Assembly: GCF_964355755.1 (NCBI RefSeq)
Contig: NC_092676.1
Location: 9,902,288-9,966,287 of the forward strand
Origin: Antedon mediterranea
Taxonomy: Eukaryota > Echinodermata > Crinoidea > Comatulida > Antedonidae
DNA length: 64,000 bases
Reading direction: 5' to 3'
The first letter of the stretch is position 1. The number at the start of each line of letters is the position of its first letter. Position numbers and translations under genes: made by a program. This document shows, in pieces, positions 29,158 to 61,895 of the stretch. The notes under the pieces were generated by a model that saw nothing but the letters and a program-made list of their open reading frames with translations, had not been told where the DNA came from and searched no databases.

Positions 29158-29516
29158 GCATCGGTGGATCCGTGTAAAATTCCCGGACGATGCATTTTTA
29201 GAATGGAATAATATCAAAGCTGACCTATAAATGACCGGTGATTATGAACTATACACGTGCAGCATCGGTGGTTCAGTGGTAGAATTCTCGCCTGCCACAC
29301 GTAGAATCCGGGTAAAATTTCCAGCCGATGCATTTTTATAATGGAACAATATCGACGCTCTCCTATAATGACCGGTGATTATAAAACATATACGTGTAGC
29401 ATCGGTGGTTCAGTGGTAGAATTCTCGCCTGCCACGCGGGGGACCCGGGTTCAATTCCCGGAATAATATCAAAGCTGACCTAGGACTGACCAGTGATTAT
29501 GAAGCATATTCGTGTA

Positions 29517-29587
29517 GCATCGGTGGTTCAGTGGTAGAATTCTCGCCTGCCACGCGAGGGACCCGGGTTCAATTCCCGGCCGATGCA
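29517..29587 (+). tRNA. tRNA-Gly(GCC)
   Basis: GCGAG variant whose anticodon stem is fully Watson-Crick. S1 spacer upstream; terminator only TTTT. Confidence 0.9.
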
Positions 29588-29921
29588 TTTTAAGAATGGA
29601 ATAATATCAAAGGTGACCTAGGACTGACCAGTGATTATGAAGCATATTCGTGTGGCATCGGTGGTTCAGTGGTAGAATTCTCGCCTGCCACGCGCCGGAT
29701 CCGGGTTCAATTCCCGGCCGATGCAATAGAATAATATCAAAGCTGACTTATAAATTACCGGTGATTATGAACTATACACGTGCAGCAGCAGTGGTTCTGT
29801 TTTAGAAATCTCGCCTGCCACAGGTAGAATCCGGGTAAAATTTCCAGCCGATGCATTTTTATAATGGAACAATATCGACGCTCTCCTATAATGACCGGTG
29901 ATTATAAAACATATACGTGTA

Positions 29922-29992
29922 GCATCGGTGGTTCAGTGGTAGAATTCTCGCCTGCCACGCGGGGGACCCGGGTTCAATTCCCGGCCGATGCA
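29922..29992 (+). tRNA. tRNA-Gly(GCC)
   Basis: Consensus copy: CTCGC/GCGGG anticodon stem, CCGGG/CCCGG T stem, seven acceptor pairs. S2 upstream, TTTTT after. Confidence 0.93.
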
Positions 29993-30059
29993 TTTTTATA
30001 ATGGAATAATATCAAAGCTGAACTAGGACTGACCAGTGATTATGAAGCATATTCGTGTA

Positions 30060-30130
30060 GCATCGGTGGTTCAGTGGTAGAAATCTCGCCTGCCACGCGA
30101 GGGACCCGGGTTCAATTCCCGGCCGATGCA
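30060..30130 (+). tRNA. tRNA-Gly(GCC), D-stem variant
   Basis: GCGAG anticodon strand, but GAAAT replaces GAATT, unpairing position 25 from G10. Otherwise intact; TTTTT follows. Confidence 0.6.
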
Positions 30131-30464
30131 TTTTTAGAATGGAATAATATCAAAGGTGACCTAGGACTGACCAGTGATTATGAAGCATATTCGTGTGGCA
30201 TCGGTGGTTCAGTGGTAGAATTCTCGCCTGCCACGCGCCGGATCCGGGTTCAATTCTCGGCCGATGCAATGGAATAATATCAAAGCTGACTTATAAATTA
30301 CCGGCGATTATGAACTATACACGTGCAGCAGCAGTGGTTCTGTTTTAGAAAACTCGCCTGCCACAGGTAGAATCCGGGTAAAATTTCCAGCAGATGCATT
30401 TTTATAATGGAACAATATCGACGCTCTCCTATAATGACCGGTGATTATAAAACATATACGTGTA

Positions 30465-30535
30465 GCATCGGTGGTTCAGTGGTAGAATTCTCGCCTGCCA
30501 CGCGGAGGACCCGGGTTCAATTCCCGGCCGATGCA
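30465..30535 (+). tRNA. tRNA-Gly(GCC), anticodon-stem variant
   Basis: GCGGA in the 3' anticodon strand leaves one terminal mismatch. Its duplicate 1366 bp on is 31831-31901. Confidence 0.6.
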
Positions 30536-31007
30536 TTTTTATAATGGAATAATATCAAAGCTGAACTAGGACTGACCAGTGATTATGAAGCATATTCGTG
30601 TAGCATCGGTGGTTCAGTGGTAGAATTCTCGCCTGCCACGCGGGGGACCCGGGTTCAATTCCCGGCCGATGAATTTTTAGAATGGAATAATATCAAAGGT
30701 GACCTAGGACTGACCAGTGATTATGAAGCATATTCGTGTGGCATCGGTGGTTCAGTGGTAGAATTCTCGCCTGCCACGCGCCGGATCCGGGTTCAATTCT
30801 CGGCCGATGCAATGGAATAATATCAAAGCTGACTTATAAATTACCGGCGATTATGAACTATACACGTGCAGCATCAGTGGTTCTGTTTTAGAAATCTCGC
30901 CTGCCACACGTAGAATCCGGGTAAAATTTCCAGCCGATGCATTTTTATAATGGAACAATATCGACGCTCTCCTATAATGACCGGTAATTATAAAACATAT
31001 ACGTGTA

Positions 31008-31078
31008 GCATTGGTGGTTCAGTGGTAGAATTCTCGCCTGCCACGCGGGAGACCCGGGTTCAATTCCCAGCCGATGCA
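31008..31078 (+). tRNA. tRNA-Gly(GCC), T-stem variant
   Basis: GCATTGG start (U5-G68 wobble) and CCCAG in the T stem (one mismatch). The duplicate is 32374-32444. Confidence 0.5.
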
Positions 31079-31287
31079 TTTTTATAATGGAACAATATCG
31101 ACGCTCTCCTATCCTATAATGACCGGTAATTATAAATCATATACGTGTAGCATCGGTGGTTCAGTGGTAGAATTCTCGCCTGCCACGCGGGGGACCCGGG
31201 TTCAATTCACGGCTGGTGCATTTTTATAATGGAATAATATCAAAGGTGACCTGGAACTGACCAGTTATTATGAAGCATATTCGTGTA

Positions 31288-31358
31288 GCATCGGTGGTTC
31301 AGTGGTAGAATTCTCGCCTGCCACGCGGGGGACCCGGGTTCAATTCCCGGCCGATGCA
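31288..31358 (+). tRNA. tRNA-Gly(GCC)
   Basis: Consensus copy. S1 upstream with the CCAGTTATTATG variant that also precedes class E units. Confidence 0.93.
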
Positions 31359-31830
31359 TTTTTATAATGGAATAATATCAAAGCTGAACTAGGACTGACC
31401 AGTGATTATGAAGCATATTCGTGTGGCATCGGTGGTTCAGTGGTAGAAATCTCGCCTGCCACGCGCCGGATCCGGGTTCAATTCCCGGCCGATGCATTTT
31501 TAGAATGGAATAATATCAAAGGTGACCTAGGACTGACCAGTGATTATGAAGCATATTCGTGTGGCATCGGTGGTTCAGTGGTAGAATTCTCGCCTGCCAC
31601 GCGCCGGATCCGGGTTCAATTCCCGGCCGATGCAATGGAATAATATCAAAGCTGACTTATAAATTACCGGTGATTATGAACTATACACGTGCAGCAGCAG
31701 TGGTTCTGTTTTAGAAAACTCGCCTGCCACAGGTAGAATCCGGGTAAAATTTCCAGCAGATGCATTTTTATAATGGAACAATATCGACGCTCTCCTATAA
31801 TGACCGGTGATTATAAAACATATACGTGTA

Positions 31831-31901
31831 GCATCGGTGGTTCAGTGGTAGAATTCTCGCCTGCCACGCGGAGGACCCGGGTTCAATTCCCGGCCGATGC
31901 A
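31831..31901 (+). tRNA. tRNA-Gly(GCC), anticodon-stem variant
   Basis: Same GCGGA variant as 30465, copied with the 1366-bp duplication. Confidence 0.6.
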
Positions 31902-32373
31902 TTTTTATAATGGAATAATATCAAAGCTGAACTAGGACTGACCAGTGATTATGAAGCATATTCGTGTAGCATCGGTGGTTCAGTGGTAGAATTCTCGCCT
32001 GCCACGCGGGGGACCCGGGTTCAATTCCCGGCCGATGAATTTTTAGAATGGAATAATATCAAAGGTGACCTAGGACTGACCAGTGATTATGAAGCATATT
32101 CGTGTGGCATCGGTGGTTCAGTGGTAGAATTCTCGCCTGCCACGCGCCGGATCCGGGTTCAATTCTCGGCCGATGCAATGGAATAATATCAAAGCTGACT
32201 TATAAATTACCGGCGATTATGAACTATACACGTGCAGCATCAGTGGTTCTGTTTTAGAAATCTCGCCTGCCACACGTAGAATCCGGGTAAAATTTCCAGC
32301 CGATGCATTTTTATAATGGAACAATATCGACGCTCTCCTATAATGACCGGTAATTATAAAACATATACGTGTA

Positions 32374-32444
32374 GCATTGGTGGTTCAGTGGTAGAATTCT
32401 CGCCTGCCACGCGGGAGACCCGGGTTCAATTCCCAGCCGATGCA
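32374..32444 (+). tRNA. tRNA-Gly(GCC), T-stem variant
   Basis: Copy of 31008 at +1366 bp with the same two changes. Confidence 0.5.
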
Positions 32445-32928
32445 TTTTTATAATGGAACAATATCGACGCTCTCCTATCCTATAATGACCGGTAATTATA
32501 AATCATATACGTGTAGCATCGGTGGTTCAGTGGTAGAATTCTCGCCTGCCACGCGGGGGACCCGGGTTCAATTCACGGCTGGTGCATTTTTATAATGGAA
32601 TAATATCAAAGGTGACCTGGAACTGACCAGTTATTATGAAGCATATTCGTGTAGCATCGGTGGTTCAGTGGTAGAATTCTCGCCTGCCACGCGGGGGACC
32701 CGGGTTCAATTCCCGGCCGATGAATTTTTAGAATGGAATAATATCAAAGGTGACCTAGGACTAACCAGTGATTATGAAGCATATTCGTGTGGCATCGGTG
32801 GTTCAGTGGTAGAATTCTCGCCTGCCACGCGCCGGATCCGGGTTCAATTCCCGGTCGATGCAGTTTTGTAATGGAATAATATCGACGCTCTCCTATAATG
32901 ACCGGTAATTATAAATCATATACGTGTA

Positions 32929-32999
32929 GCATCGGTGGTTCAGTGGTAGAATTCTCGCCTGCCACGCGGGGGACCCGGGTTCAATTCCCGGCCGATGCA
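32929..32999 (+). tRNA. tRNA-Gly(GCC)
   Basis: Consensus; S2 with GGTAATTATAAATC; followed by TTTTTG. Confidence 0.93.
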
Positions 33000-33066
33000 T
33001 TTTTGTAATGGAATAATATCAAAGCTGACCTAGGACTGACCAGTGATTATGAAGCATATTCGTGTA

Positions 33067-33137
33067 GCATCGGTGGTTCAGTGGTAGAATTCTCGCCTGC
33101 CACGCGGGGGACCCGGGTTCAATTCCCGGCCGATGCA
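33067..33137 (+). tRNA. tRNA-Gly(GCC)
   Basis: Consensus; S1; forms a pair of adjacent intact genes with 32929. Confidence 0.93.
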
Positions 33138-33958
33138 TTTTTGTAATGGAATAATATCAAAGCTGACTTATAAATTAACGGTGATTATGAACTATACACG
33201 TGCAGCATCAGCAGTGGTTCTGTTTTAGAAATCTCGCCTGCCACACGTAGAATCCGGGTAAAATTTCCAGCCGATGCATTTTTATAATGGAACAATATCG
33301 ACGCTCTCCTATAATGACCGGTGATTATAAAACATATACGTGTAGCATCGGTGGTTCAGTGATAGAATTCTCGCCTGCCACGCGGGGGACCCGGGTTCAA
33401 TTCACGGCTGGTGCATTTTTATAATGGAATAATATCAAAGGTGACCTGGAACTGACCAGTTATTATGAAGCATATTCGTGTAGCATCGGTAGATCAGTGG
33501 TAGTATTCTCGCCTACCACGCGGGTATTCTCGCCTACCAAGCATATTCGTGTGGCATCGGTGGTTCAGTGGTAGAATTCTCGCCTGCCACGCGCCGGATC
33601 CGGGTTCAATTCCCGGCCGATGCAATGGAATAATATCAAAGCTGACTTATAAATTACCGGTGATTATGAACTATACACGTGCAGCAGCAGTGGTTCTGTT
33701 TTAGAAATCTCGCCTGCCACAGGTAGAATCCGGGTTCAATTCCCGGTCGATGCAGTTTTGTAATGGAATAATATCAAAGCTGACTTATAAATTACCGGTG
33801 ATTATGAACTATACACGTGTAGCATCAGTGGTTCTGTTTTAGAAATCTCGCCTGCCACACGTAGAATCCGGGTAAAATTTCCAGCCGATGCATTTTTATA
33901 ATGGAACAATATCGACGCTCTCCTATAATGACCGGTGATTATAAAACATATACGTGTA

Positions 33959-34029
33959 GCATCGGTGGTTCAGTGGTAGAATTCTCGCCTGCCACGCGGG
34001 GGACCCGGGTTCAATTCCCGGCCGATGCA
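33959..34029 (+). tRNA. tRNA-Gly(GCC)
   Basis: Consensus; S2; first member of a 543-bp tetramer. Confidence 0.93.
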
Positions 34030-34096
34030 TTTTTATAATGGAATAATATCAAAGCTGAACTAGGACTGACCAGTGATTATGAAGCATATTCGTGTA

Positions 34097-34167
34097 GCAT
34101 CGGTGGTTCAGTGGTAGAATTCTCGCCTGCCACGCGAGGGACCCGGGTTCAATTCCCGGCCGATGCA
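34097..34167 (+). tRNA. tRNA-Gly(GCC)
   Basis: GCGAG variant; S1; second member of the tetramer. Confidence 0.92.
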
Positions 34168-34501
34168 TTTTTAGAATGGAATAATATCAAAGGTGACCTA
34201 GGACTGACCAGTGATTATGAAGCATAATCGTGTGGCATCGGTGGTTCAGTGGTAGAATTCTTGCCTGCCACGCGCCGGATCCGGGTTCAATTCCCGGCCG
34301 ATGCAATGGAATAATATCAAAGCTGACTTATAAATTACCGGTGATTATGAACTATACACGTGCAGCAGCAGTGGTTCTGTTTTAGAAATCTCGCCTGCCA
34401 CAGGTAGAATCCGGGTAAAATTTCCAGCCGATGCATTTTTATAATGGAACAATATCGACGCTCTCCTATAATGACCGGTGATTATAAAACATATACGTGT
34501 A

Positions 34502-34572
34502 GCATCGGTGGTTCAGTGGTAGAATTCTCGCCTGCCACGCGGGGGACCCGGGTTCAATTCCCGGCCGATGCA
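34502..34572 (+). tRNA. tRNA-Gly(GCC)
   Basis: Consensus; S2; starts the next repeat, 543 bp after 33959. Confidence 0.93.
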
Positions 34573-35393
34573 TTTTTATAATGGAATAATATCAAAGCTG
34601 ACTTATAAATTAACGGTGATTATGAACTATACACGTGCAGCATCAGCAGTGGTTCTGTTTTAGAAATCTCGCCTGCCACACGTAGAATCCGGGTAAAATT
34701 TCCAGCCGATGCATTTTTATAATGGAACAATATCGACGCTCTCCTATAATGACCGGTGATTATAAAACATATACGTGTAGCATCGGTGGTTCAGTGATAG
34801 AATTCTCGCCTGCCACGCGGGGGACCCGGGTTCAATTCACGGCTGGTGCATTTTTATAATGGAATAATATCAAAGGTGACCTGGAACTGACCAGTTATTA
34901 TGAAGCATATTCGTGTAGCATCGGTAGATCAGTGGTAGTATTCTCGCCTACCACGCGGGTATTCTCGCCTACCAAGCATATTCGTGTGGCATCGGTGGTT
35001 CAGTGGTAGAATTCTCGCCTGCCACGCGCCGGATCCGGGTTCAATTCCCGGCCGATGCAATGGAATAATATCAAAGCTGACTTATAAATTACCGGTGATT
35101 ATGAACTATACACGTGCAGCAGCAGTGGTTCTGTTTTAGAAATCTCGCCTGCCACAGGTAGAATCCGGGTTCAATTCCCGGTCGATGCAGTTTTGTAATG
35201 GAATAATATCAAAGCTGACTTATAAATTACCGGTGATTATGAACTATACACGTGTAGCATCAGTGGTTCTGTTTTAGAAATCTCGCCTGCCACACGTAGA
35301 ATCCGGGTAAAATTTCCAGCCGATGCATTTTTATAATGGAACAATATCGACGCTCTCCTATAATGACCGGTGATTATAAAACATATACGTGTA

Positions 35394-35464
35394 GCATCGG
35401 TGGTTCAGTGGTAGAATTCTCGCCTGCCACGCGGGGGACCCGGGTTCAATTCCCGGCCGATGCA
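35394..35464 (+). tRNA. tRNA-Gly(GCC)
   Basis: Consensus; S2; copy of 33959 at +1435 bp. Confidence 0.93.
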
Positions 35465-35531
35465 TTTTTATAATGGAATAATATCAAAGCTGAACTAGGA
35501 CTGACCAGTGATTATGAAGCATATTCGTGTA

Positions 35532-35602
35532 GCATCGGTGGTTCAGTGGTAGAATTCTCGCCTGCCACGCGAGGGACCCGGGTTCAATTCCCGGCCGATG
35601 CA
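35532..35602 (+). tRNA. tRNA-Gly(GCC)
   Basis: GCGAG variant; S1; copy of 34097 at +1435 bp. Confidence 0.92.
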
Positions 35603-35936
35603 TTTTTAGAATGGAATAATATCAAAGGTGACCTAGGACTGACCAGTGATTATGAAGCATATTCGTGTGGCATCGGTGGTTCAGTGGTAGAATTCTTGCC
35701 TGCCACGCGCCGGATCCGGGTTCAATTCCCGGCCGATGCAATGGAATAATATCAAAGCTGACTTATAAATTACCGGTGATTATGAACTATACACGTGCAG
35801 CAGCAGTGGTTCTGTTTTAGAAATCTCGCCTGCCACAGGTAGAATCCGGGTAAAATTTCCAGCCGATGCATTTTTATAATGGAACAATATCGACGCTCTC
35901 CTATAATGACCGGTGATTATAAAACATATACGTGTA

Positions 35937-36007
35937 GCATCGGTGGTTCAGTGGTAGAATTCTCGCCTGCCACGCGGGGGACCCGGGTTCAATTCCCGGC
36001 CGATGCA
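35937..36007 (+). tRNA. tRNA-Gly(GCC)
   Basis: Consensus; S2; 543 bp after 35394. Confidence 0.93.
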
Positions 36008-36349
36008 TTTTTATAATGGAATAATATCAAAGCTGAACTAGGACTGACCAGTGATTATGAAGCATATTCGTGTAGCATCGGTGGTTCAGTGGTAGAATTC
36101 TCGCCTGCCACGCGGGGGACCCGGGTTCAATTCCCGGCCGATGAATTTTTAGAATGGAATAATATCAAAGGTGACCTAGGACTAACCAGTGATTATGAAG
36201 CATATTCGTGTGGCATCGGTGGTTCAGTGGTAGAATTCTCGCCTGCCACGCGCCGGATCCGGGTTCAATTCCCGGTCGATGCAGTTTTGTAATGGAATAA
36301 TATCGACGCTCTCCTATAATGACCGGTAATTATAAATCATATACGTGTA

Positions 36350-36420
36350 GCATCGGTGGTTCAGTGGTAGAATTCTCGCCTGCCACGCGGGGGACCCGGG
36401 TTCAATTCCCGGCCGATGCA
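36350..36420 (+). tRNA. tRNA-Gly(GCC)
   Basis: Consensus; S2 (GGTAATTATAAATC); placed directly after a class B unit with no class C between. Confidence 0.93.
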
Positions 36421-36487
36421 TTTTTATAATGGAATAATATCAAAGCTGACCTAGGACTGACCAGTGATTATGAAGCATATTCGTGTA

Positions 36488-36558
36488 GCATCGGTGGTTC
36501 AGTGGTAGAATTCTCGCCTGCCACGCGGGGGACCCGGGTTCAATTCCCGGCCGATGCA
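36488..36558 (+). tRNA. tRNA-Gly(GCC)
   Basis: Consensus; S1; followed by TTTTTG. Confidence 0.93.
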
Positions 36559-37379
36559 TTTTTGTAATGGAATAATATCAAAGCTGACTTATAAATTAAC
36601 GGTGATTATGAACTATACACGTGCAGCATCAGCAGTGGTTCTGTTTTAGAAATCTCGCCTGCCACACGTAGAATCCGGGTAAAATTTCCAGCCGATGCAT
36701 TTTTATAATGGAACAATATCGACGCTCTCCTATAATGACCGGTGATTATAAAACATATACGTGTAGCATCGGTGGTTCAGTGATAGAATTCTCGCCTGCC
36801 ACGCGGGGGACCCGGGTTCAATTCACGGCTGGTGCATTTTTATAATGGAATAATATCAAAGGTGACCTGGAACTGACCAGTTATTATGAAGCATATTCGT
36901 GTAGCATCGGTAGATCAGTGGTAGTATTCTCGCCTACCACGCGGGTATTCTCGCCTACCAAGCATATTCGTGTGGCATCGGTGGTTCAGTGGTAGAATTC
37001 TCGCCTGCCACGCGCCGGATCCGGGTTCAATTCCCGGCCGATGCAATGGAATAATATCAAAGCTGACTTATAAATTACCGGTGATTATGAACTATACACG
37101 TGCAGCAGCAGTGGTTCTGTTTTAGAAATCTCGCCTGCCACAGGTAGAATCCGGGTTCAATTTCCGGTCGATGCAGTTTTGTAATGGAATAATATCAAAG
37201 CTGACTTATAAATTACCGGTGATTATGAACTATACACGTGTAGCATCAGTGGTTCTGTTTTAGAAATCTCGCCTGCCACACGTAGAATCCGGGTAAAATT
37301 TCCAGCCGATGCATTTTTATAATGGAACAATATCGACGCTCTCCTATAATGACCGGTGATTATAAAACATATACGTGTA

Positions 37380-37450
37380 GCATCGGTGGTTCAGTGGTAG
37401 AATTCTCGCCTGCCACGCGGGGGACCCGGGTTCAATTCCCGGCCGATGCA
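37380..37450 (+). tRNA. tRNA-Gly(GCC)
   Basis: Consensus; S2; copy of 35394 at +1986 bp. Confidence 0.93.
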
Positions 37451-37517
37451 TTTTTATAATGGAATAATATCAAAGCTGAACTAGGACTGACCAGTGATTA
37501 TGAAGCATATTCGTGTA

Positions 37518-37588
37518 GCATCGGTGGTTCAGTGGTAGAATTCTCGCCTGCCACGCGAGGGACCCGGGTTCAATTCCCGGCCGATGCA
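37518..37588 (+). tRNA. tRNA-Gly(GCC)
   Basis: GCGAG variant; S1; copy of 35532 at +1986 bp. Confidence 0.92.
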
Positions 37589-37922
37589 TTTTTAGAATGG
37601 AATAATATCAAAGGTGACCTAGGACTGACCAGTGATTATGAAGCATATTCGTGTGGCATCGGTGGTTCAGTGGTAGAATTCTTGCCTGCCACGCGCCGGA
37701 TCCGGGTTCAATTCCCGGCCGATGCAATGGAATAATATCAAAGCTGACTTATAAATTACCGGTGATTATGAACTATACACGTGCAGCAGCAGTGGTTCTG
37801 TTTTAGAAATCTCGCCTGCCACAGGTAGAATCCGGGTAAAATTTCCAGCCGATGCATTTTTATAATGGAACAATATCGACGCTCTCCTATAATGACCGGT
37901 GATTATAAAACATATACGTGTA

Positions 37923-37993
37923 GCATCGGTGGTTCAGTGGTAGAATTCTCGCCTGCCACGCGGGGGACCCGGGTTCAATTCCCGGCCGATGCA
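37923..37993 (+). tRNA. tRNA-Gly(GCC)
   Basis: Consensus; S2; followed by the A72 copy at 38061. Confidence 0.93.
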
Positions 37994-38465
37994 TTTTTAT
38001 AATGGAATAATATCAAAGCTGAACTAGGACTGACCAGTGATTATGAAGCATATTCGTGTAGCATCGGTGGTTCAGTGGTAGAATTCTCGCCTGCCACGCG
38101 GGGGACCCGGGTTCAATTCCCGGCCGATGAATTTTTAGAATGGAATAATATCAAAGGTGACCTAGGACTGACCAGTGATTATGAAGCATATTCGTGTGGC
38201 ATCGGTGGTTCAGTGGTAGAATTCTCGCCTGCCACGCGCCGGATCCGGGTTCAATTCTCGGCCGATGCAATGGAATAATATCAAAGCTGACTTATAAATT
38301 ACCGGCGATTATGAACTATACACGTGCAGCATCAGTGGTTCTGTTTTAGAAATCTCGCCTGCCACACGTAGAATCCGGGTAAAATTTCCAGCCGATGCAT
38401 TTTTATAATGGAACAATATCGACGCTCTCCTATAATGACCGGTAATTATAAAACATATACGTGTA

Positions 38466-38536
38466 GCATCGGTGGTTCAGTGGTAGAATTCTCGCCTGCC
38501 ACGCGGGGGACCCGGGTTCAATTCCCGGCCGATGCA
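38466..38536 (+). tRNA. tRNA-Gly(GCC)
   Basis: Consensus; S2 with GGTAATT; downstream spacer reads ATAATGTAATAA. Confidence 0.93.
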
Positions 38537-38603
38537 TTTTTATAATGTAATAATATCAAAGCTGACCTAGGACTGACCAGTGATTATGAAGCATATTCGT
38601 GTA

Positions 38604-38674
38604 GCATCGGTGGTTCAGTGGTAGAATTCTCGCCTGCCACGCGGGGGACCCGGGTTCAATTCCCGGCCGATGCA
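38604..38674 (+). tRNA. tRNA-Gly(GCC)
   Basis: Consensus; S1; followed by a unit at 38742 that has lost its D arm. Confidence 0.93.
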
Positions 38675-51598: not shown

Positions 51599-53040
51599 TT
51601 TTTATAATGGAATAATATCAAAGGTAACCTAGGACTGACCAGTGATTATGAAGCATATTCGTGTAGCATCGTGGTAGAATTCTCGCCTGCCTGCCACGCG
51701 CCGGATCCGGGTTCAATTCCCGGCCGATGCAGTTTTGTAATGGAATAATATCAAAGCTGACTTATAAATTACCGGTGATTATGAACTATACACGTGCAGC
51801 ATCAGCAGTGGTTCTGTTTTAGAAATCTCGCCTGCCACACGTAGAATCCGGGTAAAATTTCCAGCCGATGCATTTTTATAATGGAACAATATCGACGCTC
51901 TCCTATAATGACCGGTGATTATAAAACATATACGTGTAGCATCGGTGGTTCAGTGATAGAATTCTCGCCTGCCACGCGGGGGACCCGGGTTCAATTCACG
52001 GCTGGTGCATTTTTATAATGGAATAATATCAAAGGTGACCTGGAACTAACCAGTTATTATGAAGCATATTCGTGTAGCATCGGTGGATCAGTGGTAGTAT
52101 TCTCGCCTGCCACGCGGGGGACCCGGGTTCAATTCCCGGCCGATGTATTTTTAGAATGGAATAATATCAAAGGTGACCTAGGACTGACCAGTGATTATGA
52201 AGCATATTCGTGTGGCATCGGTGGTTCAGTGGTAGAATTCTCGCCTGCCACGCGCCGGATCCGGGTTCAATTCCCGGTCGATGCAGTTTTGTAATGGAAT
52301 AATATCAAAGCTGACTTATAAATTACCGGTGATTATGAACTATACACGTGTAGCATCAGTGGTTCTGTTTTAGAAATCTCGCCTGCCACACGTAGAATCC
52401 GGGTAAAATTTCCAGCCGATGCATTTTTATAATGGAACAATATCGACGCTCTCCTATAATGACCGGTGATTATAAAACATATACGTGTAGCATCGGTGGT
52501 TCAGTGATAGAATTCTCGCCTGCCACGCGGGGGACCCGGGTTCAATTCACGGCTGGTGCATTTTTATAATGGAATAATATCAAAGGTGACCTGGAACTGA
52601 CCAGTTATTATGAAGCATATTCGTGTAGCATCGGTGGATCAGTGGTAGTATTCTCGCCTGCCACGCGGGGGACCCGGGTTCAATTCCCGGCCGATGTATT
52701 TTTAGAATGGAATAATATCAAAGGTGACCTAGGACTGACCAGTGATTATGAAGCATATTCGTGTGGCATCGGTGGTTCAGTGGTAGAATTCTCGCCTGCC
52801 ACGCGCCGGATCCGGGTTCAATTCCCGGTCGATGCAGTTTTGTAATGGAATAATATCAAAGCTGACTTATAAATTACCGGTGATTATGAACTATACACGT
52901 GTAGCATCAGTGGTTCTGTTTTAGAAATCTCGCCTGCCACACGTAGAATCCGGGTAAAATTTCCAGCCGATGCATTTTTATAATGGAACAATATCGACGC
53001 TCTCCTATAATGACCGGTGATTATAAAACATATACGTGTA

Positions 53041-53111
53041 GCATCGGTGGTTCAGTGGTAGAATTCTCGCCTGCCACGCGGGGGACCCGGGTTCAATTCC
53101 CGGCCGATGCA
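53041..53111 (+). tRNA. tRNA-Gly(GCC)
   Basis: Consensus; S2; matches 39563 and 57340. Confidence 0.93.
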
Positions 53112-53178
53112 TTTTTATAATGGAATAATATCAAAGCTGAACTAGGACTGACCAGTGATTATGAAGCATATTCGTGTA

Positions 53179-53249
53179 GCATCGGTGATTCAGTGGTAGA
53201 ATTCTCGCCTGCCACGCGGGGGACCCGGGTTCAATTCCCGGCCGATGCA
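53179..53249 (+). tRNA. tRNA-Gly(GCC), A10 variant
   Basis: A10-U25 pair as at 39701; S1. Confidence 0.85.
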
Positions 53250-53583
53250 TTTTTAGAATGGAATAATATCAAAGGTGACCTAGGACTGACCAGTGATTAT
53301 GAAGCATATTCGTGTGGCGTCGGTGGTTCAGTGGTAGAATTCTCGCCTGCCACGCGCCGGATACGGGTTCAATTCTCGGCCGATGCAATGGAATAATATC
53401 AAAGCTGACTTATAAATTACCGGTGATTATGAACTATACACGTGCAGCATCAGTGGTTCTGTTTTAGAAATCTCGCCTGCCACACGTAGAATCCGGGTAA
53501 AATTTCCAGCCGATGCATTTTTATAATGGAACAATATCGACGCTCTCCTATAATGACCGGTGATTATAAAACATATACGTGTA

Positions 53584-53654
53584 GCATCGGTGGTTCAGTG
53601 GTAGAATTCTCGCCTGCCACGCGGGGGACCCGGGTTCAATTCCCGGCCGATGCA
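53584..53654 (+). tRNA. tRNA-Gly(GCC)
   Basis: Consensus; S2; followed by a class B copy with CTCAC, shared with 58021. Confidence 0.93.
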
Positions 53655-54602
53655 TTTTTATAATGGAATAATATCAAAGCTGACCTAGGACTGACCAGTG
53701 ATTATGAAGCATATTCGTGTGGCATCGGTGGTTCAGTGGTAGAATTCTCACCTGCCACGCGCCGGATACGGGTTCAATTCTCGGCCGATGCAATGGAATA
53801 ATATCAAAGCTGACTTATAAATTACCGGTGATTATGAACTATACACGTGCAGCATCAGTGGTTCTGTTTTAGAAATCTCGCCTGCCACACGTAGAATCCG
53901 GGTAAAATTTCCAGCCGATGCATTTTTATAATGGAACAATATCGACGCTCTCCTATAATGACCGGTGATTATAAAACATATACGTGTAGCATCGGTGGTT
54001 CAGTGATAGAATTCTCGCCTGCCACGCGGGGGACCCGGGTTCAATTCACGGCTGGTGCATTTTTATAATGGAATAATATCAAAGGTGACCTGGAACTGAC
54101 CAGTTATTATGAAGCATATTCGTGTAGCATCGGTAGATCAGTGGTAGTATTCTCGCCTACCACGCGGGTATTCTCGCCTACCAAGCATATTCGTGTGGCA
54201 TCGGTGGTTCAGTGGTAGAATTCTCGCCTGCCACGCGCCGGATCCGGGTTCAATTCCCGGCCGATGCAATGGAATAATATCAAAGCTGACTTATAAATTA
54301 CCGGTGATTATGAACTATACACGTGCAGCAGCAGTGGTTCTGTTTTAGAAATTTCGCCTGCCACAGGTAGAATCCGGGTTCAATTCCCGGTCGATGCAGT
54401 TTTGTAATGGAATAATATCAAAGCTGACTTATAAATTACCGGTGATTATGAACTATACACGTGTAGCATCAGTGGTTCTGTTTTAGAAATCTCGCCTGCC
54501 ACACGTAGAATCCGGGTAAAATTTCCAGCCGATGCATTTTTATAATGGAACAATATCGACGCTCTCCTATAATGACCGGTGATTATAAAACATATACGTG
54601 TA

Positions 54603-54673
54603 GCATCGGTGGTTCAGTGGTAGAATTCTCGCCTGCCACGCGGGGGACCCGGGTTCAATTCCCGGCCGATGCA
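54603..54673 (+). tRNA. tRNA-Gly(GCC)
   Basis: Consensus; S2; copy of 50304. Confidence 0.93.
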
Positions 54674-54740
54674 TTTTTATAATGGAATAATATCAAAGCT
54701 GAACTAGGACTGACCAGTGATTATGAAGCATATTCGTGTA

Positions 54741-54811
54741 GCATCGGTGGTTCAGTGGTAGAATTCTCGCCTGCCACGCGAGGGACCCGGGTTCAATTCC
54801 CGGCCGATGCA
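54741..54811 (+). tRNA. tRNA-Gly(GCC)
   Basis: GCGAG variant; S1; copy of 50442. Confidence 0.92.
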
Positions 54812-55145
54812 TTTTTAGAATGGAATAATATCAAAGGTGACCTAGGACTGACCAGTGATTATGAAGCATATTCGTGTGGCATCGGTGGTTCAGTGGTAGA
54901 ATTCTTGCCTGCCACGCGCCGGATCCGGGTTCAATTCCCGGCCGATGCAATGGAATAATATCAAAGCTGACTTATAAATTACCGGTGATTATGAACTATA
55001 CACGTGCAGCAGCAGTGGTTCTGTTTTAGAAATCTCGCCTGCCACAGGTAGAATCCGGGTAAAATTTCCAGCCGATGCATTTTTATAATGGAACAATATC
55101 GACGCTCTCCTATAATGACCGGTGATTATAAAACATATACGTGTA

Positions 55146-55216
55146 GCATCGGTGGTTCAGTGGTAGAATTCTCGCCTGCCACGCGGGGGACCCGGGTTCA
55201 ATTCCCGGCCGATGCA
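55146..55216 (+). tRNA. tRNA-Gly(GCC)
   Basis: Consensus; S2; copy of 50847. Confidence 0.93.
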
Positions 55217-55688
55217 TTTTTATAATGGAATAATATCAAAGCTAAACTAGGACTGACCAGTGATTATGAAGCATATTCGTGTAGCATCGGTGGTTCAGTG
55301 GTAGAATTCTCGCCTGCCACGCGGGGGACCCGGGTTCAATTCCCGGCCGATGAATTTTTAGAATGGAATAATATCAAAGGTGACCTAGGACTGACCAGTG
55401 ATTATGAAGCATATTCGTGTGGCATCGGTGGTTCAGTGGTAGAATTCTCGCCTGCCACGCGCCGGATCCGGGTTCAATTCTCGGCCGATGCAATGGAATA
55501 ATATCAAAGCTGACTTATAAATTACCGGCGATTATGAACTATACACGTGCAGCATCAGTGGTTCTGTTTTAGAAATCTCGCCTGCCACACGTAGAATCCG
55601 GGTAAAATTTCCAGCCGATGCATTTTTATAATGGAACAATATCGACGCTCTCCTATAATGACCGGTAATTATAAAACATATACGTGTA

Positions 55689-55759
55689 GCATCGGTGGTT
55701 CAGTGGTAGAATTCTCGCCTGCCACGCGGGGGACCCGGGTTCAATTCCCGGCCGATGCA
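55689..55759 (+). tRNA. tRNA-Gly(GCC)
   Basis: Consensus; S2; copy of 51390. Confidence 0.93.
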
Positions 55760-55826
55760 TTTTTATAATGTAATAATATCAAAGCTGACCTAGGACTGAC
55801 CAGTGATTATGAAGCATATTCGTGTA

Positions 55827-55897
55827 GCATCGGTGGTTCAGTGGTAGAATTCTCGCCTGCCACGCGGGGGACCCGGGTTCAATTCCCGGCCGATGCA
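55827..55897 (+). tRNA. tRNA-Gly(GCC)
   Basis: Consensus; S1; copy of 51528. Confidence 0.93.
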
Positions 55898-57339
55898 TTT
55901 TTATAATGGAATAATATCAAAGGTAACCTAGGACTGACCAGTGATTATGAAGCATATTCGTGTAGCATCGTGGTAGAATTCTCGCCTGCCTGCCACGCGC
56001 CGGATCCGGGTTCAATTCCCGGCCGATGCAGTTTTGTAATGGAATAATATCAAAGCTGACTTATAAATTACCGGTGATTATGAACTATACACGTGCAGCA
56101 TCAGCAGTGGTTCTGTTTTAGAAATCTCGCCTGCCACACGTAGAATCCGGGTAAAATTTCCAGCCGATGCATTTTTATAATGGAACAATATCGACGCTCT
56201 CCTATAATGACCGGTGATTATAAAACATATACGTGTAGCATCGGTGGTTCAGTGATAGAATTCTCGCCTGCCACGCGGGGGACCCGGGTTCAATTCACGG
56301 CTGGTGCATTTTTATAATGGAATAATATCAAAGGTGACCTGGAACTAACCAGTTATTATGAAGCATATTCGTGTAGCATCGGTGGATCAGTGGTAGTATT
56401 CTCGCCTGCCACGCGGGGGACCCGGGTTCAATTCCCGGCCGATGTATTTTTAGAATGGAATAATATCAAAGGTGACCTAGGACTGACCAGTGATTATGAA
56501 GCATATTCGTGTGGCATCGGTGGTTCAGTGGTAGAATTCTCGCCTGCCACGCGCCGGATCCGGGTTCAATTCCCGGTCGATGCAGTTTTGTAATGGAATA
56601 ATATCAAAGCTGACTTATAAATTACCGGTGATTATGAACTATACACGTGTAGCATCAGTGGTTCTGTTTTAGAAATCTCGCCTGCCACACGTAGAATCCG
56701 GGTAAAATTTCCAGCCGATGCATTTTTATAATGGAACAATATCGACGCTCTCCTATAATGACCGGTGATTATAAAACATATACGTGTAGCATCGGTGGTT
56801 CAGTGATAGAATTCTCGCCTGCCACGCGGGGGACCCGGGTTCAATTCACGGCTGGTGCATTTTTATAATGGAATAATATCAAAGGTGACCTGGAACTGAC
56901 CAGTTATTATGAAGCATATTCGTGTAGCATCGGTGGATCAGTGGTAGTATTCTCGCCTGCCACGCGGGGGACCCGGGTTCAATTCCCGGCCGATGTATTT
57001 TTAGAATGGAATAATATCAAAGGTGACCTAGGACTGACCAGTGATTATGAAGCATATTCGTGTGGCATCGGTGGTTCAGTGGTAGAATTCTCGCCTGCCA
57101 CGCGCCGGATCCGGGTTCAATTCCCGGTCGATGCAGTTTTGTAATGGAATAATATCAAAGCTGACTTATAAATTACCGGTGATTATGAACTATACACGTG
57201 TAGCATCAGTGGTTCTGTTTTAGAAATCTCGCCTGCCACACGTAGAATCCGGGTAAAATTTCCAGCCGATGCATTTTTATAATGGAACAATATCGACGCT
57301 CTCCTATAATGACCGGTGATTATAAAACATATACGTGTA

Positions 57340-57410
57340 GCATCGGTGGTTCAGTGGTAGAATTCTCGCCTGCCACGCGGGGGACCCGGGTTCAATTCCC
57401 GGCCGATGCA
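57340..57410 (+). tRNA. tRNA-Gly(GCC)
   Basis: Consensus; S2; copy of 53041. Confidence 0.93.
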
Positions 57411-57477
57411 TTTTTATAATGGAATAATATCAAAGCTGAACTAGGACTGACCAGTGATTATGAAGCATATTCGTGTA

Positions 57478-57548
57478 GCATCGGTGATTCAGTGGTAGAA
57501 TTCTCGCCTGCCACGCGGGGGACCCGGGTTCAATTCCCGGCCGATGCA
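57478..57548 (+). tRNA. tRNA-Gly(GCC), A10 variant
   Basis: A10-U25 pair; S1; copy of 53179. Confidence 0.85.
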
Positions 57549-57882
57549 TTTTTAGAATGGAATAATATCAAAGGTGACCTAGGACTGACCAGTGATTATG
57601 AAGCATATTCGTGTGGCGTCGGTGGTTCAGTGGTAGAATTCTCGCCTGCCACGCGCCGGATACGGGTTCAATTCTCGGCCGATGCAATGGAATAATATCA
57701 AAGCTGACTTATAAATTACCGGTGATTATGAACTATACACGTGCAGCATCAGTGGTTCTGTTTTAGAAATCTCGCCTGCCACACGTAGAATCCGGGTAAA
57801 ATTTCCAGCCGATGCATTTTTATAATGGAACAATATCGACGCTCTCCTATAATGACCGGTGATTATAAAACATATACGTGTA

Positions 57883-57953
57883 GCATCGGTGGTTCAGTGG
57901 TAGAATTCTCGCCTGCCACGCGGGGGACCCGGGTTCAATTCCCGGCCGATGCA
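57883..57953 (+). tRNA. tRNA-Gly(GCC)
   Basis: Consensus; S2; copy of 53584. Confidence 0.93.
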
Positions 57954-58287
57954 TTTTTATAATGGAATAATATCAAAGCTGACCTAGGACTGACCAGTGA
58001 TTATGAAGCATATTCGTGTGGCATCGGTGGTTCAGTGGTAGAATTCTCACCTGCCACGCGCCGGATACGGGTTCAATTCTCGGCCGATGCAATGGAATAA
58101 TATCAAAGCTGACTTATAAATTACCGGTGATTATGAACTATACACGTGCAGCATCAGTGGTTCTGTTTTAGAAATCTCGCCTGCCACACGTAGAATCCGG
58201 GTAAAATTTCCAGCCGATGCATTTTTATAATGGAACAATATCGACGCTCTCCTATAATGACCGGTGATTATAAAACATATACGTGTA

Positions 58288-58358
58288 GCATCGGTGGTTC
58301 AGTGGTAGAATTCTCGCCTGCCACGCGGGGGACCCGGGTTCAATTCCCGGCCGATGCA
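58288..58358 (+). tRNA. tRNA-Gly(GCC)
   Basis: Consensus; S2. Here the 4299-bp copies diverge: the partner position 53989 is a class D unit. Confidence 0.93.
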
Positions 58359-58425
58359 TTTTTATAATGGAATAATATCAAAGCTGACCTAGGACTGACC
58401 AGTGATTATGAAGCATATTCGTGTA

Positions 58426-58496
58426 GCATCGGTGGTTCAGTGGTAGAATTCTCGCCTGCCACGCGGGGGACCCGGGTTCAATTCCCGGCCGATGCA
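58426..58496 (+). tRNA. tRNA-Gly(GCC)
   Basis: Consensus; S1; equivalent of 40649 and 46292 before the third transposon copy. Confidence 0.93.
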
Positions 58497-58878
58497 TTTT
58501 TAGAATGGAATAATATCAAAGGTGACCCAGGACTGACCAATGATTATGAAGCATGTTCGTGAAGCATCAGTCGTTCAGTGGTAGAATTCTCGCCTGCCAC
58601 GCGGGGGACCCGGGTTCAATTCCCGGCCGATGCATTTTTATAATGGAATAATATCAAATGTGACCTAGTACTGACCAGTGATTATGAAGCATATTCGTGT
58701 AGCATCGGTGGTTCAGTGGTAGAATTCTCGCCTGCCACGCGGGTGACCTTGGTTCAATTCTCGGCCGATGCATTTTTATAATGGAATAATATAAAAGGTG
58801 ACCTATGAATTACCAGTGATTATGAAGCATATTCGTTTAGCATCGGTTGTTCAGTGACCTAGGACTGACCAGTGATTA

Positions 58879-60116
58879 GACCTAAAAAAAAATAGTTTGT
58901 TTGCTGTCATCCGCCGCCCCTAATTTCGCCAAAAATTTGGGGCGGAGATAAGAAAAAAATTTGTTTACGTTGAGGGCGCTTTTAAAAAAAAAGTTTTTTT
59001 ATGATTTTTTTTGGCCGAAAAGGTTTAAAAATCGAGTGTGTGAGGATGAAACAATAAAAATAATAACGTAGCGTATATTTCGGTGTATAATCGCACTTTT
59101 GACACGCAAATTTAACCTTATACACCGAACATAAATGCCTCAACACACAGATATCGCCACCTCGTTGGCTAGGCCTGGGCTTTTTAAGGTAAGGCCTACT
59201 AGGCCTAGCCTAGGCCTATAAGTATTACTAAAGAGTAGGCCTAGCCTAGCTACAGTGTACTAGCGTAACAGCAACCTGCTAGTTTTCTAGGCATTTTAGC
59301 GTGATTTTGTACTAAATATGATGACAAGATTTGTTCATTATATGGAGCTGTTTTAGGCGCTCCGATAAAATTTCATTTGTAAACGTTTACGATTGGAATA
59401 GTATTATAGTTATATGCACGACCGTCGTACCCCCAGCCCTTCTTGGCAACCACATGGTGTACAGTATTCGACTAGTATATTCTCCAGTTGATTATAGCAT
59501 AGACCTAGCGTACACACTTCTAGGATACATAGATACTAATCGAATACGATTGTCCGTGAAAACGTGCGCCTCTCGATAAATCGAGCGAGGCTAGCCCACA
59601 CACACGTGCGGTCATGCACTCGATGTTGCGGGTGCGAAACTCATGAATAACAAGTTAGAAAGAACTGACAGAATGGGGGACTTCCCTTCATGTTGAGGCT
59701 GGGCGCGGCCGTCTTATACATCGACGATATACAAAATACCGATATTTTACTCTCAGTTAGGGGTGCGTCTTATACACAGGTGCGACTTATACACCGAAAT
59801 ATACGGTACACTAACTTCTAAAATATTTAATTAGGCCTGCTAACAACGACCTTCTGTGTAGTAGGCCTAGCCTAGGCTAGTTTAGACACGGGGCCTAACG
59901 CGCCCAAAACAGAATTAAAGTGTGAAACAAATTATGAATAGATGTTTGAGCTCGTTGTTTTATTCAGTGTGTTTTGTTACTCTCAAATTCACGTACAATT
60001 AACAGAGAAATTAACATTAAAAAAAAAAAAAAAAAAAACTTTTTTCCACCCGCCCCCCCCCCCCCCTACCAAAACAAAAACTTGACAGAAAACAAATTTT
60101 TTTTTTTTTTTAGGCC
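58879..60116. mobile_element. Harbinger-like transposon, copy 3
   Basis: Third copy at the same relative site, shares the change seen in copy 2. Confidence 0.82.
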
Positions 60117-60503
60117 TTATGAAGCATATTCGTGTAGCATCGGTGGTTCAGTGATAGAATTCTCGCCTGCCACGCGGGGGACTCGGGTTCAATTCACGGA
60201 TGGTGCATTTTTATAATGGAATAATATCAAAGGTGACCTAGGACTGACCAGTGATTATGAAACATATTCGTGTAGCATCGGTGGTTCAGTGGTAGAATTT
60301 TCGCCTGCCATGCGGGGCACCCGGGTTAAATTCCCGGCCGATGCATTTTTAGAATGGAATAATATCAAAGCTGACCTATAAATGACCGGTGATTATGAAC
60401 TATACACGTGTAGCATCGGTGGTTCTGTTTTAGAAATCTCGCCTGCCACACGTGGAATCCGGGTAAAATTTCCAGCCGATGCATTTTTATAATGGAACAA
60501 TAT

Positions 60504-61133
60504 GTGGCACATGCAAGCGAAATCGGACATAAGTTGCATTTGTAGATTTGGAGAAACAACCAAAAACATTAAAAGGCTGAAAAATTACATTTTTTAATTT
60601 TTACAGAAAATAATAGCTGAAACAATATTTATTTACATTACCTTGGTGTTTTTCTATTTTGAGACAAATAAATAGATACATTTTAAGATTTCGTGTAGTA
60701 TGTTGGTTAAAAAGATAGTGTAAATTATGAATGATTTTCATAAAACCTATCATGTTTTATGCTTAAATTGAAAGTGTTCCATTGAGTTAATTTCAATGAA
60801 AATTTTGCATAATAATAGAACAATAGTTAATTAAGGAAGGTGCGAAGTTTCATTGAAATAAAACAATTAGAATACCCTTTTGCTAAGGCTTAAACTTAGA
60901 CGTCCTGTTTATTTTTTTGTAGTTGTCGTTTCCTGTTACTTAACTTTAAAAGCATTTTTCTCAAAACACTGATTGTAACAACCAAAACTTTAGACTAAGA
61001 TATCTTTGGAAGTAGACATGGTATCAAGATATTTTTTCAGCATTTTAAATCTTGGATTATGTAGTTTCAGTATTTGTAGAAATCTCAATTTTGAAAATTT
61101 CGACTTATGTCTGGTTTCGCTTGCATGTGCCAC
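60504..61133. mobile_element. 630-bp MITE, copy 3
   Basis: Third copy at the same position relative to its Harbinger-like neighbour. Confidence 0.88.
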
Positions 61134-61825
61134 ATATCGAAGCTCACCTATAATGACCGGTGATTGCAAAACATATACGTGTAGCATCGGTGGTTCAGTG
61201 ATAGAATTCTCGCCTGCCACGCGGGGGACCCTTTTCAAATTCCCGGCCGATGCATTTTTAGAATTGAATAATATTAAAGCTGCCCTATAAATGACCGGTG
61301 ATTATGAACTATACACGTGTAGCACGTGTGGTTCCGTTTTAGAATTCTCGCCTGCCATACGTATCCGGGTAAAATTCCCGGCCGATGCATTTTTATAATG
61401 GAACAATATCAAAGCTAACCACACGTGTAGCGTCGGTGGTTCTGCCACACGTGGATCCGTGTAAAATTCCCGGACGATGCATTTTTAGAATGGAACAATA
61501 TTAAAGCTGACCTAGGACTGACCAGTGAGTATAAATCATATACAGCTAGCTTCGGTGGTTCAGTGGTAGAATTCTCGCCTGCCACGCAGAGGACCCGGGT
61601 TTAACTCCCGGCCGATGCAGTTTTTTGTAATGGAATTATATCAAAGCTAACCTATAAATGACCGGTGATAATAAAGCATATACATGTAGCATCGGTTGTT
61701 CTGTTTTAGAAATCTCGCCTGCCACACTTGGAATCCGGGTAAAATTTCCAGCCGATGCATTTTTATAATGGAACAATATCGAAGCTCACCTATAATGACC
61801 GGTGATTGTAAAACATATACGTGTA

Positions 61826-61895
61826 GCATCGGTGGTTCAGTGGTAGAATTCTCGCCTGCCACGCGAGGACCCGGGTTCAATTCCCGGCCGATGCA
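61826..61895 (+). tRNA. tRNA-Gly(GCC), last array unit
   Basis: 70 nt: GCGAG stem followed by GACC, one base shorter in the variable loop than the others. All stems pair; TTTTT follows. The array ends in the next spacer at about 61940. Confidence 0.85.

What the first reader, a model, noticed from the sequence alone, without database searches (positions are those of the whole stretch)
29158..61895. A tRNA-Gly(GCC) gene family organised as a 33-kb satellite-like array
About 200 tRNA-Gly genes and derivatives lie head to tail every 136 bp on one strand; 48 have a fully paired cloverleaf with internal boxes and a terminator. Tandem tRNA clusters are known in several eukaryotes, but a monomeric 136-bp tRNA repeat with satellite behaviour is striking. 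The array may set glycine tRNA dosage, act as a source of tRNA fragments, or act in chromatin organisation through Pol III and TFIIIC binding.
Basis: partly seen in the sequence, partly recalled or inferred. Interest (0 to 1): 0.88.

Follow-up and report, generated by a model that had tools for sequence, protein, structure and literature searches.

The report
Feather-star tRNA genes turned into satellites
In what is most likely a feather star's genome, a glycine tRNA gene has been copied about 200 times head to tail into a satellite-like array in which about a quarter of the copies still look intact, and several other tRNA kinds sit in similar arrays elsewhere in the same genome.

Summary
Window 29099-61943 is a one-strand array of 201 monomers (mode 138 bp, not 136). 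ARAGORN tRNA-Gly(GCC), Rfam 132. I count 50 of 201 fully paired; 37 of 201 equal the dispersed tRNA-Gly sequence. The genome is most likely Antedon mediterranea, a crinoid.

It has a higher-order repeat: 16 of 16 basic tetramers are B-a-g-C (dead, mostly intact, partly intact, impaired), 98.9% alike between units, 80.5% within. Dead copies were amplified with live ones. Transposon-bearing modules present three times, 99.91-99.96% identical, show very recent duplication. Variable sites within types A-D are as frequent in tRNA as in spacer (31/284 vs 23/259, p=0.47).

The genome also holds arrays of tRNA-Lys(TTT), Cys(GCA), Lys(CTT), Val and Glu, and a six-copy run of Asp.

Best explanation: tRNA genes multiplied by unequal exchange, leaving possibly active genes among pseudogenes. 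Dosage, tRNA-fragment and chromatin roles are untested. Tandem tRNA arrays are known (Hydractinia, Entamoeba, Arabidopsis); I did not find this short monomer with a live/dead unit, or a crinoid case, described.

The parts
29099..61943 (+). Whole tRNA-Gly(GCC) array, 206 nhmmer hits, 201 monomers with a start (C7:9931386-9964230), including the insertions below
29922..29992 (+). Example of an intact copy (type A, subtype a): identical to 9 of 10 dispersed tRNA-Gly(GCC) genes; 37 of 201 copies are like this
30328..30463 (+). Example of a dead type B monomer: A box and B box altered, TTTT in the D loop, stems broken; 43 copies of the type
30198..30327 (+). Example of a type C monomer: anticodon stem damaged, no T-run before the next monomer; 28 copies of the type
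33822..34364 (+). Example of one basic higher-order unit B-a-g-C (543 bp)
   Evidence: monomer starts, unit order and identity
41097..42338 (+). First 1.24-kb transposon-like insertion (inverted ends, TTA on both sides); two more copies in the array; dispersed family in the genome
42727..43356 (+). First 0.63-kb transposon-like insertion with terminal inverted repeats; array copies at C7:9945014, 9950655 and 9962791, 100% identical; dispersed family
46740..49000 (+). Second copy of the insertion-bearing module (about 2.27 kb)
58874..61136 (+). Third copy of the insertion-bearing module (about 2.27 kb)
27081..27231 (-). Decayed piece of a monomer's spacer and old array edge, 2 kb before the array; 88% over 156 bp to C7:10.093 Mb

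Best explanation
A tRNA-Gly(GCC) gene with about 67 bp of flank was duplicated head to tail and then expanded and homogenised by unequal exchange (or replication-coupled recombination) that is blind to whether a copy works. A live and a dead lineage that had already split long ago ended up in a four-monomer unit (B dead; a mostly intact; g partly intact; C with a damaged stem and no terminator). This unit was multiplied, and blocks were lately duplicated in steps of about 4 to 12 kb together with two resident transposons. About a quarter of the copies keep a complete cloverleaf, internal promoter boxes and a T-run, so they could be transcribed and add redundantly to the dispersed tRNA-Gly genes. 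The same kind of process has acted on other isotypes in this genome. Shown: anatomy, higher-order unit, recent duplication, dispersed intact genes, further arrays. Inferred: the exchange mechanism, transcription of intact copies, no separate function of the array.
For: Higher-order unit: 16 of 16 BAAC units read B-a-g-C; 98.9% between units, 80.5% between monomers within units. Dead copies co-amplified: 43 B copies, 13-17 of 21 pairs, B box GGTAAAATTTC in 43 of 43, A box changed in 42 of 43. Recent duplication: three 2.27-kb modules with 1-2 mismatches in about 2,268 aligned sites plus 2-4 gap columns; four long within-array matches of 4.9-8.1 kb at 97.4-98.7%. Variable sites within types A-D: 31/284 in tRNA vs 23/259 in spacer, p=0.47 (27/259 and p=0.89 if four subtype-diagnostic sites are kept); types A and D alone 13/142 vs 17/134, p=0.44. 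Pair-affecting transitions: 10 keep and 4 break a pair, 23:19 possible, p=0.29. Redundancy: 10 dispersed tRNA-Gly(GCC), 9 identical to the intact array copy. Old origin: decayed monomers at C7:10.093 Mb, one with B-type changes, and C7:25.816 Mb. Other arrays: tRNA/spacer diversity ratio among tandem copies 0.90, 0.90 and 0.80 for Lys(TTT), Cys and Lys(CTT), none significant.
Against: A live lineage kept its tRNA while spacers drifted. Against the remnant-majority ancestor A1 has 1/68 tRNA and 6/64 spacer changes (p=0.057; 0/68 and p=0.011 if compared with the dispersed genes), H 1/68 and 13/64 (p=0.0004); nearly all other non-B types also have fewer tRNA than spacer changes, while B has 11/68 and 9/63 (p=0.81) and five remnants pooled 41/335 and 41/316 (p=0.81). 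So selection, or conversion from dispersed genes, acted at some time. Copies other than B-like ones have a tRNA/spacer diversity ratio of 0.43, p=0.002 (biased, since decayed classes were left out); all Gly copies 0.77, p=0.12. With all copies counted Lys(TTT) has 0.70 (p=0.035) and Lys(CTT) 0.67 (p=0.024). Arrays of several isotypes could also mean that the arrangement itself is favoured.
Confidence: 0.75

Rival explanations
1. The array is a selected gene-dosage device: many tRNA-Gly(GCC) genes supply glycine tRNA in a stage or tissue with high demand, and dead copies are tolerated passengers.
For: 37 of 201 copies are canonical and 47 of 201 have full pairing, B box and T-run. The live lineage kept its tRNA while its spacer changed. 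Other isotypes are arrayed too, each with an intact consensus. Xenopus has oocyte-specific tandem tRNA genes (PMC11500080, passages).
Against: At least 10 dispersed tRNA-Gly(GCC) genes exist, 9 identical. About three quarters of the copies are not fully paired. No constraint is visible on changes within types. Asp shows only 16 matches and a six-copy run, so arrays are not needed for every isotype. No expression data.
Confidence: 0.15
2. The array acts through chromatin (TFIIIC or Pol III binding, insulation or nuclear positioning), so B boxes rather than tRNAs are what counts.
For: 102 of 201 copies keep the B box core GGTTCAATTCC and 17 more GGTTCAATTCT. The human 1q23.3 tRNA repeat binds CTCF and looks like a boundary (PMC4041453, passages).
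Against: The B box is lost in all 43 B copies, which are a fixed part of the unit; no binding data; flanking genes were not worked out beyond one kinase-like exon.
Confidence: 0.07
3. The copy number is inflated by the assembly (haplotypes or repeat graph errors), and the true array is smaller or different.
For: The three insertion modules differ at only 0.04-0.09% of sites, close to what an assembler can confuse.
Against: Nested duplications of different length and offset, 62 distinct monomers, and decayed relatives elsewhere on C7 show a real, old array. Other isotype arrays exist on other contigs.
Confidence: 0.1
4. The monomer is a SINE or other Pol III retroelement that became tandem.
For: tRNA-like tandem repeats of that kind are known (PMC10702118, passages).
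Against: A T-run follows the tRNA directly in types other than C, E, T, O and P; no body or tail; monomer plus spacer was matched only on C7 (a lower bound); the dispersed tRNA-Gly genes have unrelated flanks.
Confidence: 0.02

Closest known systems
Tandem tRNA arrays of Hydractinia (PMC11067881; passages seen)
   Same: Animal genome; evenly spaced arrays of tens to hundreds of near-identical tRNA copies; many isotypes.
   Different: [quoted passage not shown] here about 65-100 nt in the four arrays read. No live/dead higher-order unit was described in the passages I saw.
Large tRNA clusters of Nematostella and teleosts (PMC2888827; abstract, passages and section 6 seen)
   Same: Clusters of fifty and more tDNAs, mostly parallel.
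   Different: Mostly heterogeneous pairs in Nematostella and zebrafish; not described as a single-isotype satellite with higher-order units.
Arabidopsis and maize clusters (PMC11700998, PMC12652284, PMC10701932; passages seen)
   Same: Single-isotype or fixed-order tandem units (27 tRNA-Pro, 27 Tyr-Tyr-Ser, 28 tRNA-Ile, Cys units of about 0.4 kb), copy number varies; Arabidopsis clusters reported as methylated and repressed.
   Different: Fewer copies; plants; no satellite-type higher-order unit in the passages seen.
Entamoeba tRNA arrays (PMC2652664; listing and start of abstract only)
   Same: Head-to-tail tRNA arrays.
   Different: Array units hold up to five tRNA genes with short tandem repeats between genes, and hold almost all tRNA genes of the genome.
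Human 1q23.3 tRNA repeat (PMC4041453; passages seen)
   Same: Tandem tRNA-bearing repeat with strong copy-number variation (9-43 units).
   Different: 7.3-kb unit with five tRNA genes on both strands.
tRNA-like satellites of amphibians (OAX, Rana/polIII, newt PolIII/TAN) and tRNA-derived parts in Harttia catfish satellites (PMC10702118, PMC11955569; passages seen)
   Same: Satellite or tandem repeat with a tRNA-like part.
   Different: There tRNA-like or mixed with other elements; here 37 of 201 monomers contain a complete canonical tRNA gene.

Membership tests
Tandem tRNA gene array | Many tRNA genes head to tail on one strand at regular spacing | tested here: met
   206 plus-strand nhmmer hits, 201 monomers, modal period 138; 128 ARAGORN genes
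Tandem tRNA gene array | A sizeable share of copies with intact cloverleaf, promoter boxes and terminator | tested here: met
   50 of 201 fully paired, 47 of 201 with B box and T-run as well
Tandem tRNA gene array | Copies are transcribed | not testable with these tools
   no expression data at hand
Satellite DNA with higher-order repeats | Multi-monomer units far more alike than the monomers within them | tested here: met
   98.9% between 16 units, 80.5% within
Satellite DNA with higher-order repeats | Amplification regardless of gene function | tested here: met
   43 dead B copies are part of the unit
Satellite DNA with higher-order repeats | Heterochromatic or centromeric place, or very long arrays | tested here: inconclusive
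   33 kb at 9.93-9.96 Mb of a 30.5-Mb contig; chromatin and centromere unknown
SINE | tRNA head plus body and tail, dispersed by retroposition | tested here: not met
   T-run directly after the tRNA; monomer plus spacer matched only on C7, a capped search
Human 1q23.3-type boundary repeat | CTCF binding and bivalent chromatin | not tested
   no binding or chromatin data

The most novel reading that the evidence does not exclude
In this crinoid a large part of the tRNA gene set exists as isotype-specific satellites, and copy number is selected at the level of the whole array (for example as an oocyte or early-embryo tRNA reserve, like the oocyte-type tandem tRNA genes of Xenopus), so that dead copies are tolerated as long as turnover keeps a quorum of live ones.
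Probability: 0.2. Interest if true: 0.8.

Novelty: new variant of a known kind. Interest (0 to 1): 0.55.

Why it matters
Satellites usually carry nothing whose function can be read from sequence. Here each monomer carries a gene whose integrity can be scored base by base, so the balance between satellite turnover and selection on a gene could be measured, in several isotypes side by side in one genome. It also warns that tRNA gene counts in such genomes mix live genes with co-amplified dead ones, and it gives a test case for how an animal tolerates or silences hundreds of surplus Pol III genes.

Tried and rejected
SINE: rejected as the main reading (T-run directly after the tRNA, no body or tail, monomer plus spacer matched only on C7). 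Assembly artefact: not excluded for the exact copy number, but nested duplications of different length and offset do not look like one haplotype switch. Compensatory change in stems: 0 of 21 pairs with both sides changed in 16 distinct rows (17 of the 201 copies were given, one of them type B). Selection on pairing: pair-keeping transitions 10 of 14, not significant (these changes include old differences between types). Higher-order repeat in the other arrays: identity by lag is flat for Lys(TTT) and Cys, and noisy for the 33 copies of Lys(CTT). COX1 to name the species: no match in the held contigs (its search includes only the best candidates); the stretches of C17 and C18 that I fetched gave no mitochondrion. 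Pfam on seven exon-like frames of the flank: one kinase match, six without match. Faults to note: the script stopped with an error after types A-D, so E-G were not done; the Cys reference is a variant unit, so its 4 of 120 fully paired is probably too low; the ancestor is a majority of the same remnants that are then compared with it, which lowers the remnants' own counts, and a sixth, partial remnant (3/17 and 3/64) was left out of the pooled count; one search used 29 representative sequences of the 62 distinct monomers.
Full report
WHAT IS THERE. The window lies at G000:C7:9902288-9966287 of a 354-Mb, 18-contig genome. From 29099 to 61943 it holds tRNA-Gly(GCC) monomers on the + strand: 206 nhmmer hits, 201 monomers with a start, 62 distinct, lengths mostly 138, 137 and 130. 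ARAGORN tRNA-Gly and Rfam RF00005 132 at or above gathering score. Of the 201, 50 have all 21 cloverleaf pairs and no indel (41 type A, 3 each of H, I and L), 47 also a GGTTC B box and TTTT within 12 nt, and 37 are base for base the canonical sequence.

SPECIES. A 5'-nucleotidase pieced together from C7:25.80-25.82 Mb matches an Antedon mediterranea protein at 99% over its whole length, on a contig of 30,557,870 bases; C7 is 30,548,870 bases long; the next hit, Anneissia japonica, is 75%. I take the genome as Antedon mediterranea, Crinoidea (taxonomy); the difference of 9,000 bases is unexplained.

HIGHER-ORDER STRUCTURE. Clustering at 6% gives 21 types. The basic unit is B-A-A-C; after splitting A by a spacer base, 16 of 16 such units read B-a-g-C. 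Units are on average 98.9% identical to each other (minimum 98.0%), monomers inside a unit 80.5%; neighbour identity peaks at lag 4 (0.849, against 0.75-0.78 at lags 1-3). That is a higher-order satellite repeat. Many monomers lie in variants of the unit (for example B-D-E-C-F), not in the plain tetramer. Type B (43 copies) is dead: 13-17 of 21 pairs, B box GGTAAAATTTC in 43 of 43, A box changed in 42 of 43, TTTT inside the D loop in 42 of 43. Subtype a is canonical in 28 of 33; subtype g is fully paired in 13 of 28 and canonical in 3 of 28. Type C (28 copies) has 17-19 of 21 pairs and no T-run before the next monomer: the first TTTT lies about 75 nt on, inside the next copy, which is B in 22 and F in 6 of 28. 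If C is transcribed it should read through.

AGE AND TURNOVER. Two transposon-like insertions (41097-42338, TTA on both sides; 42727-43356, ends TGTGGCACATGC, TA or ATAT on both sides) recur three times each. Both are dispersed families: the three array copies of the 0.63-kb one are 100% identical and the next copy is 94%; for the 1.24-kb one the next is 91%. The three 2.27-kb modules containing both differ by 1-2 mismatches in about 2,268 aligned sites plus 2-4 gap columns. Matches of 8147, 7227, 5578 and 4866 bp at offsets 5654, 17766, 12118 and 4308 (97.4-98.7%) show nested duplications (the 17.8-kb offset is about the sum of two others). So the array grew very recently in kilobase steps, after the unit had formed. 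Older traces are decayed monomers at C7:10.093 Mb (both strands) and C7:25.816 Mb; one of them carries B-type changes, so the live/dead split is old. The minus-strand remnant at 27081-27231 shares 88% over 156 bp, non-array flank included, with the 10.093-Mb locus, 164 kb away.

IS THERE SELECTION? Two phases. Old: from the majority of the decayed remnants, A1 has 1/68 tRNA and 6/64 spacer changes (p=0.057; the one tRNA difference vanishes against the dispersed genes, then p=0.011), H 1/68 and 13/64 (p=0.0004), B 11/68 and 9/63 (p=0.81), five remnants pooled 41/335 and 41/316 (p=0.81). Most other non-B types lie between (for example C 4/67 and 11/57, D 4/68 and 8/64, L 5/68 and 9/64). A live lineage was kept while spacers drifted, by selection or by conversion; H is probably a recombinant, which weakens that row. 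Recent: within types A-D, variable sites are 31/284 in tRNA and 23/259 in spacer after dropping four spacer sites that only separate the two A subtypes (p=0.47), 31/284 and 27/259 without dropping (p=0.89); A and D alone 13/142 and 17/134 (p=0.44), or 21/134 without dropping (p=0.14). Distinct changes in gap-free copies of ten more intact types: 14 break a pair, 10 keep it, 10 are unpaired; pair-keeping transitions 10 of 14 against 23 of 42 possible, p=0.29. No compensatory double change in 16 distinct rows. Single copies thus show no clear constraint now, though the test is small.

NOT THE ONLY GENES. Ten tRNA-Gly(GCC) outside the array were found, eight at C7:8.018-8.033 Mb and two at C5:10.826-10.830 Mb; 9 of 10 are identical to the array's intact copy, with flanks that do not resemble the array's. 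The count is a lower bound.

NOT THE ONLY ARRAY. An Rfam tRNA search of the genome scored 63 of 35,763 candidates and returned 62 matches: 58 on C8, 2 on C2, 2 on C3. Fetched and read: tRNA-Lys(TTT), C8:23582228-23675178, 241 monomers of about 175 bp, 229 of them dense in C8:23634967-23675178 and 12 scattered to the left, 75 of 241 fully paired; tRNA-Cys(GCA), C2:14174780-14191635, 120 monomers of about 137 bp, 4 of 120 fully paired against a variant reference; tRNA-Lys(CTT), C3:8097827-8102160, 33 monomers of 146 bp, 12 of 33 fully paired. By match positions only: Val, 56 of 58 matches in C10:15237659-15293530 on +; Glu, 38 of 40 matches in C10:14303880-14365661 on -, many about 422 bp apart. 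Both lists are capped. Asp gave 16 matches, six of them a short run with about 161-bp spacing at C11:19442738-19443620. The Pro and Gly(TCC) searches did not complete, and the other isotypes were not searched. Of the seven isotype/anticodon sets seen, six have 33 or more copies or matches in one array and one does not. These were not a random draw: three came from the top of the Rfam list. Among tandem copies the tRNA/spacer diversity ratio is 0.90, 0.90 and 0.80 for Lys(TTT), Cys and Lys(CTT), none significant; with all copies 0.70 (p=0.035), 0.80 (p=0.12) and 0.67 (p=0.024); all Gly copies 0.77 (p=0.12), Gly without B-like classes 0.43 (p=0.002, biased by the choice).

MECHANISM. Most likely tRNA genes with short flanks are duplicated, and unequal exchange multiplies and homogenises blocks without regard to function. 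That tRNA clusters can stall replication forks and are unstable is said in the survey PMC2888827 (section 6 read). Intact copies may be transcribed; nothing here shows it.

AGAINST WHAT IS KNOWN. Large tRNA clusters are established: fifty and more members in Nematostella and teleosts (PMC2888827, section 6); [quoted passage not shown] 27 tRNA-Pro and 27 Tyr-Tyr-Ser units in Arabidopsis and 28 tRNA-Ile in maize, Arabidopsis clusters being reported as methylated and repressed (PMC11700998, passages); moss clusters of 26, 18 and 14 identical genes (PMC12652284, passages); the human 1q23.3 repeat of 7.3 kb, 9-43 units (PMC4041453, passages); Entamoeba arrays (PMC2652664, listing only). Tandem repeats with tRNA-like parts are known in amphibians (PMC10702118, passages) and tRNA-derived parts in catfish satellites (PMC11955569, passages). 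Xenopus has oocyte-specific tandem tRNA genes (PMC11500080, passages). I found no description of tRNA satellites in a crinoid or other echinoderm, nor of a live/dead higher-order tRNA unit; several listings were cut (40 of 95, 12 of 123, 15 of 44), and the library lacks most subscription journals.

VERDICT. The finding is real and wider than described: several isotype arrays, not one. It is a new variant of a known kind.

Noticed in passing
G000:C8:23634967-23675178 (L028-L032): A 40-kb tRNA-Lys(TTT) array of 229 monomers of about 175 bp, with 12 scattered copies to its left in groups 2.5-13 kb apart.
   Followed up: partly
G000:C2:14174780-14191635 (L034, L036): A tRNA-Cys(GCA) array of 120 monomers of about 137 bp, strongly decayed.
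   Followed up: partly
G000:C3:8097827-8102160 (L039, L035): A small tRNA-Lys(CTT) array, 33 monomers of 146 bp.
   Followed up: partly
G000:C10:15237659-15293530 and C10:14303880-14365661: Runs of tRNA-Val (+) and tRNA-Glu (-) matches, seen as match positions only; the sequence could not be fetched.
   Followed up: no
G000:C11:19442738-19443620: Six tRNA-Asp matches about 161 bp apart: perhaps an array at its beginning.
   Followed up: no
window 20494-25854 (+): A 1786-codon open frame that reads like a Pao/BEL-type retroelement polyprotein (recognised by eye; no family search made).
   Followed up: no
window 5112-5553: Seven copies of a 63-bp tandem repeat, 98% alike.
   Followed up: no
window 27081-27231 (-) and L012:1829-1982: A decayed array edge whose non-array flank is shared (88% over 156 bp) by a locus 164 kb away, pointing to an older array end that was copied.
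   Followed up: partly
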